The notes beneath the pieces are model-generated. The model searched no databases, was not told the origin of the DNA, and saw only the letters and a list, made by a program, of their open reading frames with translations. A stretch of 64,000 bases of DNA from Leptolyngbya sp. PCC 6406 (GTDB lineage: Bacteria; Cyanobacteriota; Cyanobacteriia; Phormidesmidales; Phormidesmidaceae), in the NCBI RefSeq assembly GCF_000332095.2, contig NZ_KI913949.1, positions 213,089 to 277,088 on the forward strand, read 5' to 3'. This document shows, in pieces, positions 2,257 through 63,303 of the stretch. Each line of letters opens with the position of its first letter. Positions within the stretch are counted from its first letter, which is position 1. A program made the position numbers and the translations under genes.

Positions 2257-2773
2257 GACTGTCCCTTGAGGTTCCTAGAGGAAAAGCAATTATGTCGGTC
2301 ATCTTAGAAGACTGGGGTAGGCTCTGGTACAGGGGCATTACACCTAGTGATGGGGATAGAATGAGACAAATCTTGACCTCTATGCCCCTGTCAACTGTTG
2401 ATCAGGTTGATTAGATTGTTCATTAAATTCATTAGATTAATATAAAGACCACTATCGAGAGCGGCCAACGACTCGTATCGACTGGCGAAAATAGCCTACT
2501 ACCGCAGGGCGTAAATCAGCCCACTATTGTCGCGTCAGCCCAACATGTTCTGGTCCCCTCTCCCTTTGGGAGAGGGCTAGGGTGAGGGGCCGAGGTGTAC
2601 CACGATAGAACGGTTAGGATATTGACGCCGCAGGGTACTACTCTGTTGACCCTCACTGTTCGGCTGAGCTAATGTCGAAGCCCTAAATTCCTCTTCCAGG
2701 GTGGGCTACTGCTTATACACATCTTGCCCGCAAGGGTGTTAGGACTTATGTATACACGGTAGCCCACCAGTTC
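2257..2773. other. Intergenic region with repeat copy and hairpin
   Basis: No gene seen. It holds repeat family A copy 1 (2497-2640) and, just before the hydrolase gene, a 10-base inverted repeat GGTGGGCTAC (2700-2709) / GTAGCCCACC (2759-2768) enclosing a second small hairpin (CTTGCCCGCAAG). This could be a 5-prime leader structure of the hydrolase gene. Confidence 0.5.
2497..2640. mobile_element. Family A MITE-like element, copy 1
   Basis: About 144 bp, no coding capacity. It begins TACTACCGCAGGGCGTAAAT and ends with the complementary terminus (GACGCCGCAGGGTACTA), with the central GAGAGGGCTAGGGTGAGGGG core shared by five other copies in the window. The termini are inverted repeats. Confidence 0.85.
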
Positions 2774-13156: not shown

Positions 13157-13326
13157 GATTACCCGGTACAGGGTGGGTTTAAACCCCACCTCTGGATCAC
13201 CCGGTACAGGGCGGGTTTTGACTGACCAATGCCTGATTACCCGGTACAGGGCAGGTTTTGACTGATCAATGCCTGATCACCCGGTACAGGGCGGGTTTTG
13301 ACTGTCCAATGCCTGATTACCCGGTA
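13157..13326. repeat. 40-bp tandem repeat (three full units plus partial ones)
   Basis: Units start at 13195, 13235, 13275 and (partial) 13315, each GAT(T/C)ACCCGGTACAGGGC then GGGTTTTGACTG and CCAATGCCT. A degenerate unit precedes them at 13157. The exact 40-base period indicates recent expansion. Non-coding; it lies between the DUF1194 gene and pflA. Confidence 0.9.
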
Positions 13327-22506: not shown

Positions 22507-22713
22507 CTAGTACTCCGGGGCGGAAATCCTGAGCCCATTTCCCCTAGGCGTTGCCTTTCTGCGGTGCATTGCTTCGCGAATGCACCCTACGAAACCCTGA
22601 AAATCAAATCTGATGATGCACCAGCCCAACATTTTCCGGTCCCCTCGCCCCCTGGGAGAGGGCTAGGGTGAGGGGCCGAAGTGTACCACGATAAATACGC
22701 CGCAGAGTACTAG
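22507..22713. mobile_element. Family A MITE-like element, copy 2
   Basis: Bounded by CTAGTACTCC and GCAGAGTACTAG, with the core GAGAGGGCTAGGGTGAGGGG. It contains an inserted GTGCATTGCTTCG / CGAATGCACCCTACG palindrome, as does copy 3. It directly abuts the IS630-type element, whose left terminus begins in its last TAG. Confidence 0.85.
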
Positions 22714-22772
22714 TACTGGGTGGCTGAAATGACCTTACCATTGAGAGGTAGGGTAAAGAGGACTTTTCTACA

Positions 22773-23351
22773 ATGGCTAGACTGACTGCCGCCAGGCTCA
22801 CTTTGAGCGAAACGGAGCGGAGCGACTTAGAGCAATTGATTCGACGTCAGCGGACGTCACAGCAGCTCGCTTTGCGCGCCAAGATTATCCTCACAGCTGA
22901 TGAGGGCAAAGGCCATGGCGAAATCGCCCGAGACTTGGGGGTCAGCAAAGAGATGAGTCGCCGCTGGCGGGGGCGTTGGCTGGAGTTGAGTCAACAACAG
23001 GTCGCTGTGGAAGAGCGCCTACAGGATGTCCCTCGTCCCGGGGCTCCGGCTACCTTTAGCCTCGAACAAATCACGCAACTCTATGCCCTAGCTTGTGCAC
23101 CGCCCGAGCAGTATGGCCGCCCCATCAGTCATTGGACCCCTGGAGAACTGGCCGATGAACTGAGCAAGCAGGGAATTGTCGAGAGTATCAGTCCCCGTCA
23201 TGTGGGCCGACTGTTGGCCGAGGCTGACCTCAAACCCCACCAGAGCCGTTACTGGCTCTCCCCCCCCCCGACCCTAACTTCGAGGACAAAGTCAAAGACA
23301 TTTGCCAGGTCTACGAACAGGCTGCCACTCGTGCCGAACACGGCGAGCTGA
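22773..23351 (+). CDS. IS630-type transposase, N-terminal frame
   Basis: 192 residues, of which about the first 165 are genuine transposase. A helix-turn-helix DNA-binding region (KGHGEIARDLGVSKEMSRRW near 50-68), a second helical region (SHWTPGELADELSKQGI, then SPRHVGRLLAEADLKPHQSR), and the linker to the catalytic domain are visible. Translation leaves the transposase frame at a run of ten C residues (23260-23269), after YWLSPPP. The remaining residues up to 23351 are out of frame. A ribosomal or transcriptional slip on the C10 run would join it to the catalytic frame at about 23270. Confidence 0.85.
   Translation: MARLTAARLTLSETERSDLEQLIRRQRTSQQLALRAKIILTADEGKGHGEIARDLGVSKEMSRRWRGRWLELSQQQVAVEERLQDVPRPGAPATFSLEQITQLYALACAPPEQYGRPISHWTPGELADELSKQGIVESISPRHVGRLLAEADLKPHQSRYWLSPPPTLTSRTKSKTFARSTNRLPLVPNTAS
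23260..23269 (+). promoter_or_regulatory. C10 slippage tract in the transposase gene
   Basis: Ten consecutive C bases lie exactly where the two transposase frames need to join. Homopolymer tracts are known sites of transcriptional or ribosomal slippage in IS elements and of replication slippage in general. It could also be a sequencing or assembly error. Confidence 0.6.
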
Positions 23352-23974
23352 CCTTCAGCCTGGATGAGATGACGGGAATCCAGGCTCTGGAACGGACGAT
23401 GCCTGACATCGCCATGAAGCCGGGACGCTGTACCCGCATTGAGTTTGAGTATATTCGCCATGGCACTCAAACCCTGATTGCCTCATTCAATGTCGCTACC
23501 GGACAGGTGGATCAGGCCACCGTGGGAGACACCCGCACCGAGCAAGACCTCGAGAGTCACCTCAGAGCCTTACTGGCCCAAGTTCCAGATGCCTCCAAGA
23601 TTCATCTGGTCATGGATTGCCTCAACACTCATCAATCGGAATCTCTCGTCCGACTGGTGGCGGAACGCGAGGAAAAACCGATTCATCTGGGCCAGAAAGG
23701 GAAGACGGGCATTCTCCTGTCTATGGCGACCCGAGCGGCGTTCTTGAGCGACCCCAGCCATCGACTGGTCGTTCACTTCACCCCCAAGCATTGCTCCTGG
23801 CTCAATCAAATTGAGCTTTGGTTCTCCATCCTGGTACGTAAGCTACTCCGACGTTCGAGTTTTACCAGTCAAGCCCAACTCAAGGCGAAGATTTTAGCGT
23901 TTGTCGATTACTTCAATCGCACCATGGCTAAGCCCTTCAAGTGGAACTACACGGGTAAGCCCTTGGTCGCATAA
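23270..23974 (+). CDS. IS630-type transposase, catalytic DDE frame
   Basis: The catalytic half, open from just after the C10 run; its first internal ATG is at 23369. The segment after the run continues the transposase (NFEDKVKDICQVYEQA). Acidic residues: the first Asp in FSLDEMTG, the second in HLVMDCLNTHQ, and the Glu in HCSWLNQIELWFS, a block typical of IS630. FNRTMAKPFKWNY closes the domain. It needs a frameshift on the C10 tract for a full protein (about 400 residues together). The element may be active, phase-variable or just damaged; a single base of tract change would restore or break it. Confidence 0.82.
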   Translation, partial: DPNFEDKVKDICQVYEQAATRAEHGELTFSLDEMTGIQALERTMPDIAMKPGRCTRIEFEYIRHGTQTLIASFNVATGQVDQATVGDTRTEQDLESHLRALLAQVPDASKIHLVMDCLNTHQSESLVRLVAEREEKPIHLGQKGKTGILLSMATRAAFLSDPSHRLVVHFTPKHCSWLNQIELWFSILVRKLLRRSSFTSQAQLKAKILAFVDYFNRTMAKPFKWNYTGKPLVA

Positions 23975-24081
23975 ATGCCTTGGCCACTTCCGCCAAGCAG
24001 TACTAGTACCAACGCAAAGTTTCCCACCTGCCCAACTCTAACTAAGATATTGAGTACAGACACAAAAAAGTTGCCGTTTCT

Positions 24082-31470: not shown

Positions 31471-31641
31471 CTAGTACCGCAGGACGTAAATCAGTCCACT
31501 ATTGTCGCACCAGTCCAATATTTTCCGGTCCCCTCTCCCCGTGGGAGAGGGCTAGGGCTTCGGCGTGAGATCAGCCGAACGGTGAGGGGCCGAGGTGTGC
31601 CACGATAGAACGGCTAGGGTATTTACGCCGCAGAGTACTAG
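31471..31641. mobile_element. Family A MITE-like element, copy 4
   Basis: From CTAGTACCGCAGGACGTAAAT to ATTTACGCCGCAGAGTACTAG, about 171 bp. The TIRs are best preserved in this copy. It carries an extra CTTCGGCGTGAGATCAGCCGAACG loop relative to copies 1, 5 and 6. It lies between apcD and the next gene; bases 31642-31774 show nothing else. Confidence 0.88.
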
Positions 31642-35024: not shown

Positions 35025-35924
35025 ATGTCCGTCGTCGCTGCCGTTTCCGTTGCTGACTGCACTTGGCCTTGGCAAGGGTTACCCATTCGCTATCAGGTGG
35101 CGGGGAGTGGGGGAATCTCCTTGGTGCTCATTCATGGGTTTGGAGCCTCTAGCGACCATTGGCGCAAAAATATTCCCGATCTAGCCCAAACCAATCGGGT
35201 CTATGCCCTTGACCTCCTAGGCTTTGGCAAATCGGTGAAGCCCTTTCCCGGTAATCCCCTGCCCTACACCTTTGAAACCTGGGGCCAACTGGTGGTGGAT
35301 TTTTGTCGGGAAGTGGTGGGGGAGACCGCTGTGTTGGTGGGCAACTCCATTGGTTGCATTGTGGCCATGCAGGCAGCGGTGATGGAGCCGAGTCAGGTGC
35401 ATGCGATCGCAATGCTGGACTGCTCGCTGCGGCTGCTTCACGATCGCAAGCGAGCCACCTTGCCCTGGTATCGCAGTGCCCCCACACCCCTAGTACAAAC
35501 CCTATTGGGGGTACCCCTCTTGGGTCGGTTCTTTTTTTCGCGGCTGGCGCGACCCCAAGTGATTCGTCGGGTGTTGACCCAAGCCTATGGCCGCCAGGAA
35601 GCAGTGACCGATGAACTGGTAAACCTGCTGCTGGCCCCAGCCCAGGATCCGGGGGCACCGGATGTCTTTCTGGCCTTTGTGCGCTATTCCCAAGGGCCAC
35701 TACCGGAGGATCTACTGCCCCAGTTGACCTGCCCCGTATTGATGCTGTGGGGAATGGAGGATCCTTGGGAACCCATTGATCTGGGACGAGAACTAGCCCA
35801 GGCAGCGGCTAGCGTGGAGTTTATTGCCCTAGCGGGGGTCGGCCATTGTCCCCAGGATGAAGCCCCCGAGGTGGTAAATCCGATCCTGCGCGATTGGGTG
35901 GCTAATTTGCCGATGAAATCCTCT
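35025..35924 (+). CDS. Alpha/beta-fold hydrolase
   Basis: 300 residues. Oxyanion HGFGASSDHWRKN near residue 36, nucleophile elbow VGNSIGCIVA (Ser near 109), acid in LMLWGMEDPWEP near 238, and catalytic His in GVGHCPQDEAPE near 267. The layout resembles chloroplast and cyanobacterial hydrolases of the pheophytinase/haloalkane-dehalogenase type, but the substrate is not known. The stop TAG (35925-35927) is also the terminal TAG of the repeat element that follows, so the 3-prime end of this gene coincides with the insertion point of a mobile repeat. Confidence 0.85.
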
Positions 35925-36059
35925 TAGTGCTCTGTCAAGCCTCAATTTGTAGGTTGGGTGCAGCGCTAGCGGAACCCAACATAGCCTACCGTTGTTGGGT
36001 TTCACTTCGTTTCACCCAACCTACGAGTATCCTCATCTTTAGTCTTGACGCTGCACTAG
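35924..36059. mobile_element. Family B MITE-like element, copy 1, between two convergent stop codons
   Basis: Termini TTAGTGCTCTGTCAAG and, in complement, CTAGTGCAGCGTCAAG. The internal GTAGGTTGGGTGCAGCGCTAGC / GTTGGGTTTCACTTCG palindromes recur in copy 2. The left TAG (35925-35927) is the stop codon of the hydrolase, and the right CTA (36056-36058) is the stop codon, on the minus strand, of the sugar transferase gene. Confidence 0.85.
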
Positions 36060-37054
36060 GCTGCCCCTGAGCGGTGGGTAAATAGGACCAAAACTGTCTT
36101 GAGGATGAGCTTGATATCGTAGAGCAGACTCCAGTTTTCCTGGTACTTCAGGTCTAGACGGATCACATCCTCAAAGCGCTTGATACTGGAACGCCCATTG
36201 ACCTGCCATTCGCCGGTCATTCCCGGTTTGACGTCCAGGCGCTGCCACTCCATCACCTCATAGTGATCCAGTTCATCGACGGTTGGGGGGCGAGTGCCTA
36301 CCAGACTCATATCTCCCTTGAGCACATTCCAGAACTGGGGCAATTCATCCAAACTGGTCTTGCGCAAAAATCGCCCCACCCGCGTAATGCGGGGGTCATT
36401 TTCATTCTTGAACAGGGGGCCTTCTACCTGATTTTCTACCTGATGCTTCATGCCTTCAGCATGCACCACCATGGATCGAAACTTCCAAATCCGAAAGCGA
36501 CGCCCCATCCAAGAACAGCGGATCTGACCAAATAGGATGGGTCCACCATCATCTAATTTAATTGCGATCGCAATGGGAATCGCCAGCACCGTTGTCAAAC
36601 CCAGCCCCACAATAGCCCCCACCACATCCATGGCCCGTTTGGTGCGGGAGGTCACGGAAGGATGGGGTGTGGGGATCGGTTTATCCGGGGCCTGGATTAT
36701 CACCTTCGGGGGCGGAGCTGCCGCTGTGGCGATGGTAAACACCTTATCTAAATCCGTCATAGCCAGGGTCATCATCACCTGGGGGCCGACCTTTTCTAGG
36801 CGCAACGCAGTCTTATGCTGCTCGCAGAGTCGGCGGCAGATTACCAGTGCTCCAATACCGCTGCTGTCTACAAAGGTCGTCTGGCTGAAATCCAGAAAGA
36901 GCTTTTCGAGTTGGGGTCTCTGGTCGAGGAGTGTTTGGCAGGTTTGGCGAAATGCCATCGCCTCAGTCACGGTAAAGACAGGAGGAATGGGGAGCACACA
37001 GTGACGGTCAGAACACAGGGGCTGCATCGGGAGGAATTCCTCATCTAGCGACAT
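36056..37054 (-). CDS. STAS domain fused to undecaprenyl-phosphate sugar transferase
   Basis: 332 residues. Residues about 15-115 are a STAS (anti-sigma-factor-antagonist) domain with [20 protein letters not shown] carrying the phosphorylatable Ser. A linker with Pro residues leads to a transmembrane helix (about 150-175, [20 protein letters not shown]) and the WcaJ/PglC-type catalytic region: [48 protein letters not shown]. These enzymes start exopolysaccharide repeats by moving a hexose-1-phosphate onto the polyprenyl carrier. The fusion suggests that a phosphorylation-dependent partner-switch signal gates polysaccharide initiation. GGAG lies 7 bases before ATG. Confidence 0.92.
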
Positions 37055-43748: not shown

Positions 43749-43860
43749 TGCTCTGAATTGGTTCTGAGGAACCTAGAGGTGTCCCTTGCGTCCTGCTCAG
43801 GGGGCATCCCGTTGCCCTAGAATCCAGGCTAGGATCACCCCACACAGGGTAAAGGGAATC

Positions 43861-45018
43861 ATGAAGCGAGCCTACTGGTTGGGGGCGGGGGCGGTCATTG
43901 TGGGATTGGCGCTGGTGGTGGGGCTCCGGGCCCTACGTCAAGGCCCTGGCAATGACTATCTGCCGGAGGATCAACAGGCGGAATTGGAGACGGGTCTGAC
44001 CCTGCGGGATGTCACCCTAGAGCAGCCCGACGATGATGGGAATATACTCTGGCGGGTCAAGGCGGAGACCGTCACCTATAGCGTCGATAAACGGGTGGCG
44101 GTGGTGAAAAATCCTGAGGGAGAACTGTATCAAGATGGGGAGTTGCTCTATCGGGTGGAGGGGCAGGAAGGGGAAATTCGTGAAAACGGGGAATTCATTT
44201 TCCTTCGGGGTAATATTGTCGCCCGAGGGATCCAAAATAAGGTGGTGCTGCGGGGCAATGAAATGGAATGGCGCACCCAGGTGGATGTGATGATCCTGCG
44301 CGATCGCGTTACGGGCACCCATCCTCAACTGCGCGCTGCTGCCGAGGAGGTTCGGGTCTATGACCGAGTGAAACGCATGGATCTGCTGGGGGATGCGATC
44401 GCAAATACGGTAGTAGAAGATCCTAAAATCGAACCCTGGCTCAAGCTCCAAGCCGATGCCCTCCGCTGGCATTGGGAGGCAGAGGAGGTGGAGAGCAAAC
44501 AGCCGCTACGGGTAGAACGCTTCCTGAATGAAACCATCACTGAGGTCACCACCAGCGATCGCGGTTTTGTGGATTTGGCCAACGCCCAGGTCACCCTCAC
44601 CAGTAATGTTCTGGTGCAACTCCTCACCCTCTCCCTCAAAATTGCCAGCGAACAGGCGATCTGGAATGTGGAACAGGAGCAGGTGGTTATCGACACGCCC
44701 CTCAAGATCGATAGCGACGAACAAGCCACATCCCTCACTGCCCAGCAGGGACGGCTAGATCTAGCGGCGGATACAGTACACCTGAGCCGTGCCGTAGAGG
44801 CGATCAGTGCCCGCAATAATGGTCGCCTTACGACTGACAACCTGACCTGGAATTTAGCCGACCAGACGGTACTTGCAGAAGGGAATGTGAATTATCAGCA
44901 AGGAGACCCGAGCCTGACGGTACGCGGCCCCCGCGCCCTAGGACGAATTGAGGCCCAAACCGTGGTCTTCAGCGGCGGCGGCGGCGGCCAAGTGGTAACG
45001 GAGATTGTGACACCCTAG
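43861..45018 (+). CDS. lptC: LptC/LptA-like lipopolysaccharide export protein
   Basis: 385 residues from ATG 43861. An N-terminal transmembrane helix (about 6-24, LGAGAVIVGLALVVGLRAL) anchors a periplasmic LptC domain (about 45-220; TLRDVTLEQPDDDGNILWRV and RVEGQEGEIRENGEFIFLRG) and a further OstA-like beta-jellyroll region to the end (AISARNNGRLTTDNLTWNLA, TVLAEGNVNYQQGD). In this system LptC receives LPS from LptBFG and hands it to LptA. The fused double length is typical for cyanobacteria. The TAG stop (45016-45018) is part of the terminus of repeat family A copy 5. Confidence 0.9.
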   Translation: MKRAYWLGAGAVIVGLALVVGLRALRQGPGNDYLPEDQQAELETGLTLRDVTLEQPDDDGNILWRVKAETVTYSVDKRVAVVKNPEGELYQDGELLYRVEGQEGEIRENGEFIFLRGNIVARGIQNKVVLRGNEMEWRTQVDVMILRDRVTGTHPQLRAAAEEVRVYDRVKRMDLLGDAIANTVVEDPKIEPWLKLQADALRWHWEAEEVESKQPLRVERFLNETITEVTTSDRGFVDLANAQVTLTSNVLVQLLTLSLKIASEQAIWNVEQEQVVIDTPLKIDSDEQATSLTAQQGRLDLAADTVHLSRAVEAISARNNGRLTTDNLTWNLADQTVLAEGNVNYQQGDPSLTVRGPRALGRIEAQTVVFSGGGGGQVVTEIVTP

Positions 45019-45152
45019 TACTCTGTGGCGCAAATACTCTGACCGTTCTATCGTGGTACACTCGGCCCTCGCCCTCGCCCCTTGGGAGAGGGGACCGGAA
45101 AAGGTTGGGCTGGTGCGACAATAATGGGCTGATTTACGCCGTGCGGTACTAG
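45015..45152. mobile_element. Family A MITE-like element, copy 5
   Basis: From CTAGTACTCTGTGGCGCAAAT (45015) to GCCGTGCGGTACTAG (45152). The first TAG is the stop codon of lptC. With copy 6, in the same orientation, it brackets the small gene at 45162. Confidence 0.88.
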
Positions 45153-45161
45153 GGCGGCACA

Positions 45162-45539
45162 ATGTTCCACATCATGACCCAAACCATCAGTCTTAAAGCT
45201 GGAGAGACAGCCATCATCTATCGCCGCAGTTTCAGTAGTGTGCCGATAGAAATTTGTTTTTACGCTACAGCATTGGCGGGGAGCGACCCTAAGGGTGAGC
45301 TGGAGATTCAAGGATCTCGTTGGGTATTTCCCCGACCACCCTTGCTCTATCCTTTGCAGCCCCAGAATATTGTTAAGGCTGGCTTCTGGGATACGTTTTT
45401 TAAGATCAAGGTGACAGCTCACATTGATCTTGAAATCACCTTCCCAGGGCAGAAACTTGACCGAAGCCGCTGGCTGATTTGGGTGATCGTTTGCGTGCTC
45501 ATAGCCGCAACTCTCATTCTTTGGCTAGCAACCGCCTAG
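45162..45539 (+). CDS. Small unknown protein with C-terminal transmembrane helix, between two repeats
   Basis: 125 residues (or 121 from the ATG at 45174). No family recognised. Residues 1-95 form a soluble beta-rich domain (AGETAIIYRRSFSSVPIEIC, FYATALAGSDPKGELEIQGS, HIDLEITFPGQKL), followed by one hydrophobic helix near 103-123 (WLIWVIVCVLIAATLILWLA), so it is probably a tail-anchored protein. The gene starts ten bases after repeat copy 5 ends, and its stop TAG (45537-45539) is the first TAG of copy 6, so it lies exactly between two mobile-type repeats. It might have been carried in as a unit. Confidence 0.6.
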   Translation: MFHIMTQTISLKAGETAIIYRRSFSSVPIEICFYATALAGSDPKGELEIQGSRWVFPRPPLLYPLQPQNIVKAGFWDTFFKIKVTAHIDLEITFPGQKLDRSRWLIWVIVCVLIAATLILWLATA

Positions 45540-45681
45540 TAATCTGCGGCGTAAATACCCTAACCGTTCTATCGTGGTACATTTCGACCCCTCACCCTAG
45601 CCCTCTCCCACGGGGAGAGGGGACTAGAAAATGTTGGGCTAACGGGACGATAGTGGGCTGATTTACGTCTTGCGGTACTAG
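45536..45681. mobile_element. Family A MITE-like element, copy 6
   Basis: From CTAGTAATCTGCGGCGTAAAT (45536) to CTTGCGGTACTAG (45681). The first TAG is the stop codon of the small membrane protein gene. Same orientation as copy 5. Confidence 0.88.
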
Positions 45682-49714: not shown

Positions 49715-49850
49715 CTAGTGGTCTGTCAACGTTACCTTTGTGAGTCTGCGTAGGTTGGGTGAAACGAAGGGTCACCTAACAGCGGTGGGCTATGTTGGGT
49801 TCCGCTAGCGCTGTACCCAATCTACAAAATTCGGTTTGACAGACCACTAG
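49715..49850. mobile_element. Family B MITE-like element, copy 2
   Basis: From CTAGTGGTCTGTCAA (49715) to TTGACAGACCACTAG (49850), a perfect 15-bp terminal inverted repeat. The internal GTAGGTTGGGTG and GTTGGGTTCCGCTAGCGCTG are shared with copy 1 at 35924. No coding content. Confidence 0.9.
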
Positions 49851-58030: not shown

Positions 58031-58079
58031 ATTAGGTACGACTATTCATGGAAAAATGGAACCCGCTCAAGCCCTAAAG

Positions 58080-58211
58080 CTAGGGCGTGTGGACAATTAA
58101 CGAGGAAACCCTTGCAGGGTAGGTATAACCACGCCCACCCTACTGAGCCAAGCTAGGGGCTGCAACCGCCCCATAACCAGGAATCTAGCTTTGATTGTCC
58201 ACCGACCCTAG
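58080..58211. mobile_element. Family D repeat element, copy 1
   Basis: From CTAGGGCGTGTGGACAATTA to the complementary GATTGTCCACCGACCCTAG. The termini are an imperfect inverted repeat, both closing at CTAG. The left 40 bases recur at 62810 (GTGGACAATTAACGAG, then AAACCCTTGC and GGGTAGG). It lies four bases from the end of the SLH gene. Confidence 0.75.
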
Positions 58212-61457: not shown

Positions 61458-62807
61458 ATGCCGCAGGTTAATATGACCGTCCCCCGTACGATTTGCGCTG
61501 GGTTTTTGGCGCTAATTACCGTGGGAACTGGATTGCTGCTATTGCCCATGGCCACTGCTGCGGGCACCTGGAATGATCCCATCGTGGCCTTATTTACTGC
61601 TACTTCTGCGGTCTGCGTCACGGGGTTGATTGTGGTGGATACGGGCAGTTACTTTTCTCCCCTGGGTCAAGTCATCATTCTGGCCCTGATTCAAGTAGGG
61701 GGGCTGGGGTATATGACTGCAACCACCTTTCTCCTATTACTTTTGGGGCGGCGGTTGGGGCTGCGCGATCGCCTTGCCCTGCAGAAGTCTATGGATACCC
61801 AGGAACTATCGGGGGCAAAGTCGTTGATTATCTCTATCATCGGCATGATTTTGATCTTTGAGATTTCCGGTGTCTTTTTACTGCTCCCTCAGTTTGCCCA
61901 TCAGTTTGGGCTCCAGGCAGGACTGTGGCTGTCTCTCTTTCACAGCATTAGTGCCTTTAACAATGCCGGATTCAGCCTGTTTTCTGACAGTATGATCCAG
62001 TATGTCCAGTCTCCCGTAATTAATTCAGTCATTACAGGTTTAGTCATTATGGGAGGTATTGGTTATCAGGTGATTATGGAGGCATTTTTGTGGTGCCGTG
62101 ATCGCCTTAAGGGCCGTAAAAAGCGGGCCACATTTTCCCTGCATTTCAAAATTGTCACCAGTACCACCCTGGCCTTGTTGGCTCTGGGCACAGTTATGCT
62201 TTTTTACACGGAATACAACAATCCAGATACCCTCGGCGCTTTGCCCCTCGGCACCAAACTCACCGCTGCCTGGTTTCAGTCTGTCATTGCCCGGACCGCT
62301 GGGTTCAACTCCATTGATATTGGTAAGATGCACAATGCCTCACTGTTTTTTATGGCGGCGCTGATGTTTGTGGGGGCAAGTCCTGGAAGTACGGGGGGAG
62401 GGATTAAAACTACGACTATACGCATTCTACTTATCTGTACCCGTGCTTCTCTGAGAGGGAAGGAAGCGGTCCTAGCCTACCAGCGTGAAATCCCCGCCTC
62501 TCGGATATTAAAGGCTATTAGTGTGGTGATGGGCTCCGGCTGCATGGTTCTGGGGATAACCACTTTAATTGCTATTTTCGATCCGGGCTTTAACTTTTTG
62601 CAAATTCTGTTTGAAACCGTGTCTGCCTTTGCCACGGTGGGTTTATCTACGGGTATCACGCCAGAATTATCCACTATTTCCAAACTTCTCATTATTGGCA
62701 CGATGTATGTGGGCCGAGTTGGAGTGTTGCTGTTCATCGCAGCGCTCGTCGGCGATCATGGTCCTAGTGTCATTAGTTACCCCGAAGAGGATCTATTAGT
62801 AGGTTGA
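61458..62807 (+). CDS. KtrB/TrkH-family potassium or sodium translocating subunit
   Basis: 449 residues with eight to ten transmembrane segments arranged as four MPM repeats. The four filter regions are TSAVCVTGLIV, SAFNNAGFSL, IARTAGFNSI and SAFATVGLSTG; the glycine of each repeat is present, including the first. This is the KtrB (NtpJ) type that moves potassium with sodium, working with a cytosolic KtrA/TrkA nucleotide-binding ring; the partner gene is not seen downstream in this window. A role in osmotic adaptation is expected. It ends three bases before a repeat element. Confidence 0.93.
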   Translation: MPQVNMTVPRTICAGFLALITVGTGLLLLPMATAAGTWNDPIVALFTATSAVCVTGLIVVDTGSYFSPLGQVIILALIQVGGLGYMTATTFLLLLLGRRLGLRDRLALQKSMDTQELSGAKSLIISIIGMILIFEISGVFLLLPQFAHQFGLQAGLWLSLFHSISAFNNAGFSLFSDSMIQYVQSPVINSVITGLVIMGGIGYQVIMEAFLWCRDRLKGRKKRATFSLHFKIVTSTTLALLALGTVMLFYTEYNNPDTLGALPLGTKLTAAWFQSVIARTAGFNSIDIGKMHNASLFFMAALMFVGASPGSTGGGIKTTTIRILLICTRASLRGKEAVLAYQREIPASRILKAISVVMGSGCMVLGITTLIAIFDPGFNFLQILFETVSAFATVGLSTGITPELSTISKLLIIGTMYVGRVGVLLFIAALVGDHGPSVISYPEEDLLVG

Positions 62808-62809
62808 AA

Positions 62810-63303
62810 CTAGGGGATGTGGACAATTAACGAGAAAACCCTTGCGGGGTAGGCATGACCAAGTCTGCCCTTGTCGTGGCGACTTTAGTCATCCTAACGA
62901 CGGGCAGAGCCTCGGGTGGGGATTCCCAGACTTTGCCTGGGAACCAGGAAAAAAGCAGATCCTTTTCCGCGTCAAGTTTGAATTTTCTGGCTGAGTCACG
63001 CTGGCGCTGACCCAGCCAGCCTTGACTGGTGCTGGGTCCGACTTAGTTGGACCCAGCCTATGGCAGCGCTCGCCGCTGTCAAGCCTGGTTTGCTTATCGT
63101 AACGTCAACAAAATTCAGAGAATCACAAGAAAGGTAACGAGATTAAGAGATTCTTAAGGGTGATCCCCGATAATGGGGAGCAGATCATATTGTGCTTTTT
63201 TCTCTGGGCCTTAGGAAATTGCTGCTCTTAGTGGTGGTGATTTTTCTCTGGTTTTCCGCTTGTAACAAACTCCTGTGTACATCTCTTTGTAGATCCCAAT
63301 CCC
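62810..63303. other. Gap with partial family D repeat and hairpins
   Basis: It begins with CTAGGGGATGTGGACAATTA (partial family D copy 2, about 62810-62860) and continues with a hairpin GCTGGGTCC (63031-63039) / GGACCCAGC (63049-63057). No gene is seen on either strand except very short frames. Confidence 0.5.

What the first reader, a model, noticed from the sequence alone, without database searches (positions are those of the whole stretch)
35924..36059. A MITE-like repeat supplies the stop codons of both convergent genes
The left terminal TAG of family B copy 1 is the stop of the alpha/beta hydrolase (35925-35927), and the right terminal CTA is the minus-strand stop of the STAS-sugar-transferase gene (36056-36058). 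The same is seen for lptC (45016-45018) and the small gene at 45162 (45537-45539) with family A copies. Four gene ends coincide exactly with repeat termini. CTAG-directed insertion would regenerate TAG after target duplication and so spare the reading frame. This may be a safe-site strategy that explains how such repeats become abundant near genes.
Basis: partly seen in the sequence, partly recalled or inferred. Interest (0 to 1): 0.8.

Follow-up and report, generated by a model that had tools for sequence, protein, structure and literature searches.

The report
IS630-type MITEs inserted in stop codons
Short transposon relics in this bacterium jump into the sequence CTAG, and because many genes here end in C-TAG, about one in five of the relics' ends outside coding sequence sits exactly in a gene's stop codon and rebuilds that stop without harming the protein; this is a neat but explainable result of target choice plus selection.

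Summary
All four ORF ends coincide with repeat termini, and the pattern holds genome-wide: in 2.45 Mb of the same genome, 51 of 232 non-coding CTAG termini (22%) are in-frame stops, against 249 of 5,329 empty non-coding CTAG ends (4.7%), odds ratio 5.7. It replicated in a held-out 0.8 Mb. The repeats are non-autonomous relatives of a 1.3-kb IS630-family element (12 copies) with the same CTAG-flanked termini. Empty paralogous sites show one TA where filled sites have two. The element's terminal G completes TA-G, so insertion into the TA of a TAG or TAA stop always leaves TAG. Orthologues of lptC and the STAS sugar transferase end at the same residue without the repeat, so the stops were there first: the repeat regenerates stops rather than creating them. 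No "strategy" is needed. CTAG sites 1-15 nt before a stop are never occupied (0 of 90), the stop is occupied 17% of the time, +1 to +20 nt 12.5% (not different), and further downstream 6-8%: target preference filtered by selection. The doubly hit convergent pair is best read as a known 4-nt stop overlap split by the insertion. New member of a known kind, with a well-quantified twist.

The parts
35925..36058 (+). family B MITE copy 1: TA duplications at 35925-35926 and 36057-36058, element proper 35927-36056, site T|TA|G; its two ends are the stop codons of two convergent genes
   Evidence: sequence; paired-terminus table, flagged BOTH; strong hairpin, z -8.3
35025..35927 (+). alpha/beta hydrolase gene; stop TAG 35925-35927 formed by target TA + element G
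   Evidence: orthologues end within -5 to +12 aa of this point
36056..37054 (-). STAS + bacterial sugar transferase gene; stop at 36056-36058; TAA inferred before insertion
   Evidence: six orthologues end at exactly the same residue, stops TAA, TGA or TAG
45016..45151 (+). family A MITE copy in the lptC stop: TA at 45016-45017 and 45150-45151, site C|TA|G
43786..45018 (+). lptC-like gene; stop TAG 45016-45018
   Evidence: seven orthologues end at the same residue, most others within a few residues
45537..45680 (+). family A MITE copy in the stop of the 45162 ORF: TA at 45537-45538 and 45679-45680, site C|TA|G
45162..45539 (+). small conserved gene of unknown function with a hydrophobic C-terminus; stop TAG 45537-45539
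   Evidence: orthologues in G002, G003 and G004 end at 0 or -1 aa of this point
22711..24005 (+). autonomous IS630-type element with the same termini (TAGTACTGGGTGGC...GCCAAGCAGTACTA), 1295 bp including both TAs; ORFs 22773-23351 (HTH_32) and 23369-23974 (DDE_3)
2497..2640 (-). family A copy, not at a called gene stop
31472..31640 (-). family A copy, intergenic, 56 nt past a gene stop
49716..49849 (-). family B copy, intergenic

Best explanation
Families A and B are non-autonomous elements (MITEs) moved by an IS630/Tc1-mariner-type transposase that inserts at the TA of C-TA-G (more loosely Y-TA-R) and duplicates that TA. The elements begin with G and end with C, so a copy landing on the TA of a TAG or TAA stop codon leaves TA+G = TAG in frame: the protein is unchanged and the element becomes the 3' UTR. 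Insertions anywhere else in a gene are removed by selection. In this genome 44% of genes end in TAG and about 16% of all stops are C-TAG, so stops are the largest class of harmless targets next to genes, and about one in five non-coding element ends sits in one. When two convergent genes share one Y-TA-R in overlapping stops, a single insertion gives both of them a terminal TAG and moves them about 130-170 bp apart, as at 35925-36058. Shown: termini, TA duplication, transposon kinship for family A, the frequency excess, the absence of insertions just inside genes, and pre-existing gene ends for lptC and STAS. Inferred: that selection rather than transposase choice removes CDS insertions, that the listed IS630 element is the active partner of family B, and the TAA-to-TAG change in the STAS gene.
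For: TA sites: 61 of 70 paired elements have C|TA...TA|G flanks, the rest mostly CTAA, TTAG or TTAA; replicate 26 of 31. Copies lying in a dispersed repeat have more than 30 paralogous empty sites with one TA in CTAG. IS630-type element, 12 copies of 1294-1295 bp, same terminal TAGTAC...GTACTA and all in C|TA|G. Stop enrichment: 22% against 4.7%, pooled OR 5.7, p 5e-19. Occupancy by distance from the stop: 0/90 at -15..-1, 51/300 at the stop, 17/136 at +1..+20, 5.8-7.6% beyond. Genes ending at paired elements: inferred original stop TAG 26, TAA 3. Density: convergent 0.74/kb, tandem 0.30, divergent 0.13. Nine empty and three occupied convergent pairs share one TA. Orthologue ends.
Against: No near-identical strain with an empty site at these very loci exists in the collections; the closest congeners are about 70-77% identical here. 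The stop is only 1.4-fold more likely to be occupied than +1..+20 nt (not significant), and in the replicate the +1..+20 class was low (2 of 47 sites). The 2-3-fold excess of gene ends over distant intergenic CTAG is not fully explained: missed genes, functional intergenic DNA, or a mild MCTAG preference (37/51 against 136/249) may all contribute. Genes were called with my own Markov model. Family B termini share only TAGTR and the target with the IS630 element.
Confidence: 0.88

Rival explanations
1. The transposase actively prefers stop codons or gene 3' ends (a safe-site strategy), for example by reading an extended consensus, supercoiling or terminator structure.
For: CTAG at stops is 2-3 times more occupied than CTAG 20-300 nt downstream, even with a repeat-free null; convergent regions are richest; slight MCTAG preference.
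Against: +1..+20 nt is occupied about as often as the stop (p 0.26); no strong extended motif in the flanks; near-total absence from CDS fits selection; IS630 was reported to prefer simply TA in CTAG (Tenzen and Ohtsubo 1991, cited in PMC2170065).
Confidence: 0.2
2. The repeats created the stops by inserting into coding sequence and truncating the genes.
For: A TA target followed by C or T would turn a tyrosine codon into TAG; one paired case has TAT on the far side.
Against: With CTAG targets the TAG was already in frame; inferred original stops are 26 TAG and 3 TAA; the one TAT case abuts a second, degenerate element; STAS and lptC orthologues end at the same residue.
Confidence: 0.05
3. The repeats are kept at gene ends because they work as bidirectional terminators or mRNA 3' stabilisers.
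For: Family B copy 1 folds into a very stable hairpin (z -8.3 and -7.3 on the two strands); convergent regions are enriched.
Against: Family A copies do not fold better than shuffles (z -1.1 and -1.4); no expression data; inverted-repeat transposons fold anyway.
Confidence: 0.15
4. Coincidence of CTAG abundance at stops; no more than random CTAG.
For: About 16% of stops are CTAG.
Against: OR 5.4, 6.5 and 3.9 in two samples of this genome and in a congener.
Confidence: 0.02

Closest known systems
IS630 family (IS630 of Shigella; ISY100 of Synechocystis; Tc1/mariner relatives)
   Same: TA target and duplication; CTAG preference reported for IS630 (Tenzen and Ohtsubo 1991, as cited in PMC2170065); HTH + DDE_3 transposase; found in cyanobacteria
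   Different: here mostly short non-autonomous copies, often end to end sharing one CTAG; stop-codon placement quantified
Nezha and other cyanobacterial MITEs (e.g. in Anabaena 90, PMC3542288)
   Same: short inverted-repeat elements, mostly intergenic, many copies
   Different: Nezha's paper is not held, so sequence kinship was not tested; I found no report of stop-codon placement for these
Pneumococcal BOX repeats (PMC3049150)
   Same: 36 BOX copies encode the stop codon of the upstream gene, without strong evidence of truncation
   Different: BOX is a modular repeat, not known to be an IS630 MITE; there the stop lies in the repeat rather than in a target duplication completed by the element
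MITEPsy1 of Pseudomonas syringae (PMC3189936)
   Same: MITE inserting at CTAG or YTAA
   Different: suspected IS5-type with a 4-nt duplication
4-nt convergent gene overlaps CTAG, CTAA, TTAG, TTAA (PMC2174442)
   Same: exactly the Y-TA-R sequence that the element targets; explains how one insertion can end two genes
   Different: an arrangement of genes, not an element

Membership tests
IS630-family MITE | TA target duplication | tested here: met
   flank table and paralogous empty sites
IS630-family MITE | target preference CTAG | tested here: met
   61/70 and 26/31 paired elements in CTAG
IS630-family MITE | terminal inverted repeats shared with an autonomous IS630 element in the genome (family A) | tested here: met
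   family A termini TAGTACTGGGCGGC against TAGTACTGGGTGGC of the IS
IS630-family MITE | terminal inverted repeats shared with an autonomous IS630 element in the genome (family B) | tested here: inconclusive
   only TAGTR and the CTAG target are shared with the 1.3-kb element; no closer partner was found among the two IS630 families
IS630-family MITE | no transposase gene; short; many copies | tested here: met
   about 130-170 bp; 246 termini with TA in 1.65 Mb and 109 in a further 0.8 Mb
IS630-family MITE | mobilised by the IS630 transposase | not testable with these tools
   needs a transposition assay
IS630 transposase | HTH + DDE_3 domains | tested here: met
   HTH_32 and DDE_3 in two adjacent ORFs
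Nezha MITE | sequence similarity to Nezha | not tested
   paper and sequence not held

The most novel reading that the evidence does not exclude
The element and its transposase have evolved, or been filtered towards, a target whose duplication plus the terminal G automatically rebuilds a stop codon, so that gene ends act as a real insertion niche. Hundreds of insertions then remodel stop-codon usage and pry apart overlapping convergent genes across a genome.
Probability: 0.15. Interest if true: 0.7.

Novelty: new member of a known kind. Interest (0 to 1): 0.42.

Why it matters
It gives a quantified mechanism for how CTAG-seeking transposons accumulate in a compact genome: the duplicated TA plus the element's G rebuilds the stop codon, so gene ends tolerate insertion where sites a few bases earlier do not. 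About 3% of called genes (60 of 1,883) end in such an element, and overlapping convergent genes can be separated in one step. The same test can be run on any IS630-type element in annotated genomes.

Tried and rejected
Generic inverted-pair search missed many degenerate copies and was replaced by terminus matrices with a reversed-sequence control. A 4-bp CTAG duplication was rejected because the outer base varies (TTAG, CTAA) while the inner base is constant, and empty sites hold one TA. Truncation of the genes by insertion was rejected. CTAG scarcity as an explanation was rejected: 3.7 CTAG per kb, about that expected from base composition. The second IS630 family (ends TATAGCGGATTT) was rejected as the partner because its termini do not match. 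Direct empty-site orthologues at the three loci were not available: the nearest congeners are too diverged and the hydrolase and STAS matches lie on different contigs there. The genome-contig scan found only distant relatives. The original IS630 CTAG paper is not held.

Full report
WHAT WAS CHECKED. The window is G000:C1:213089-277088 of a 5.78-Mb genome. The two named relatives found by one LptC search are filamentous cyanobacteria (Oscillatoria, Leptolyngbya). Pfam supports the three gene identities. The small ORF at 45162 is conserved in three relatives.

ANATOMY. Family A (about 132-145 bp) and family B (about 130 bp) have imperfect terminal inverted repeats beginning TAGTAC or TAGTG. The outer TA is the duplicated target and the inner G...C is the element. 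Of 70 paired elements 61 sit in C|TA|G, four in CTAA, two in TTAG and one in TTAA; in the second sample 26 of 31 sit in CTAG. The outer base varies while the inner base does not, which excludes a 4-bp CTAG duplication. Some copies sit inside another dispersed repeat, of which more than 30 copies without the insert carry a single TA at that point. Copies often stand end to end and share one CTAG (21 and 14 such sites).

THE AUTONOMOUS PARTNER. Searching the genome for DDE_3 gave two multi-copy IS630 families. One, 12 copies of 1294-1295 bp, begins TAGTACTGGGTGGC and ends GCCAAGCAGTACTA, the same kind of termini as family A, always in C|TA|G and often abutting a family A copy. The window copy is at 22711-24005, with HTH_32 and DDE_3 in two adjacent ORFs. 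For family B only TAGTR and the target are shared, so its partner is inferred. ISY100, an IS630-family element of Synechocystis, inserts into TA with TA duplication, and IS630 was reported to prefer TA in CTAG (PMC2170065 and its reference list).

STATISTICS. Genes were called by a self-trained Markov model, and termini by matrices with a reversed-sequence control. In 1.65 Mb, 44 of 198 non-coding, non-tandem termini are the stop of a called gene. Restricted to CTAG it is 37 of 168 (22%), against 175 of 3,538 (4.9%) empty non-coding CTAG ends (OR 5.4, p 1.7e-13). With frozen gene and terminus models, a further 0.8 Mb gave 14 of 64 against 74 of 1,791 (OR 6.5). In a congener with its own variant of the element, 4 of 30 against 9 of 240 (p 0.04). 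Pooled for this genome: OR 5.7, p 5e-19. Element copies are related by descent only through transposition, but a few lie in duplicated segments, so the p-values are slightly optimistic.

WHERE THE EXCESS COMES FROM. Occupancy of CTAG sites by distance to the nearest stop, pooled: -60 to -16, 1 of 282; -15 to -1, 0 of 90; stop, 51 of 300 (17%); +1 to +20, 17 of 136 (12.5%); +21 to +60, 5.8%; +61 to +300, 6-8%. Removing CTAG sites in repeated sequence changes little. About two thirds of empty CTAG sites lie in coding sequence but only 11 of 285 termini do. So the sharp edge is the coding boundary, and the stop codon is the first tolerated site and the commonest CTAG position near a gene end. The stop is not clearly preferred over the next 20 nt (p 0.26), though gene ends are 2-3 times more occupied than distant intergenic sites. 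Convergent regions carry 0.74 elements per kb, tandem 0.30, divergent 0.13. This gradient fits avoidance of promoters.

WHY THE FRAME SURVIVES. TA is duplicated and the element starts with G, so insertion into TAG or TAA always leaves TAG. Of 30 gene ends at paired elements the far flank implies an original TAG in 26, TAA in 3 and TAT in 1; the last abuts another degenerate element and is not interpretable. Orthologues without the insert confirm pre-existing ends: six STAS transferases stop at exactly the same residue with TAA, TGA or TAG, and seven LptC orthologues stop at the same residue. The small protein's orthologues end within one residue. The hydrolase C-terminus varies in length among relatives (-5 to +12 aa), so it is uninformative.

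THE DOUBLE CASE. At 35925-36058 the inferred empty site reads TTAG, which is TAG for the hydrolase and TAA for the opposite gene. Convergent 4-nt overlaps made of CTAA, TTAA, CTAG or TTAG are a known class (PMC2174442) and are the commonest short convergent spacing here (7 pairs). Pooled, nine empty and three occupied pairs share one TA. One insertion thus ends two genes and separates them.

VERDICT. The 'strategy' reading is not needed, though a mild gene-end preference is not excluded. A repeat that carries the stop codons of many genes without truncation has a precedent in pneumococcal BOX repeats (PMC3049150). I found no report of it for IS630 MITEs in the papers searched, but most subscription papers are not held.

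Noticed in passing
G000:C1:776644-776836 and 783635-783827 (fetched loci), with more than 30 empty relatives across the genome: A second abundant dispersed repeat (...atcaagcTAggggctgtaaccgccc...) serves as a landing site for family A copies and gives direct empty-site evidence.
   Followed up: partly
L101-L108 (own genome): A second IS630 family, 8 copies of about 1.02 kb with ends TATAGCGGATTT, near-identical and so probably recent, not CTAG-bound.
   Followed up: no
own genome, 2.45 Mb sampled: TAG is the commonest stop codon (827 of 1,883 called genes, 44%); 60 of these are element termini, so the bias is mostly not due to the elements.
   Followed up: partly
window 13195-13326: Tandem array of 40-bp units (GATCACCCGGTACAGGGCGGG...), about three copies, overlapping predicted ORFs.
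   Followed up: no
window 58077-58141 and 62807-62871: Another pair of dispersed repeats (CTAGGG..TGTGGACAATTAACGAG); TAGGGGCTGTGGAC-type words are frequent genome-wide.
   Followed up: no
G000:C1:1805228-1805966: Three alternating A and B copies in a tandem array at about 247-bp spacing, suggesting a compound unit was duplicated.
   Followed up: no
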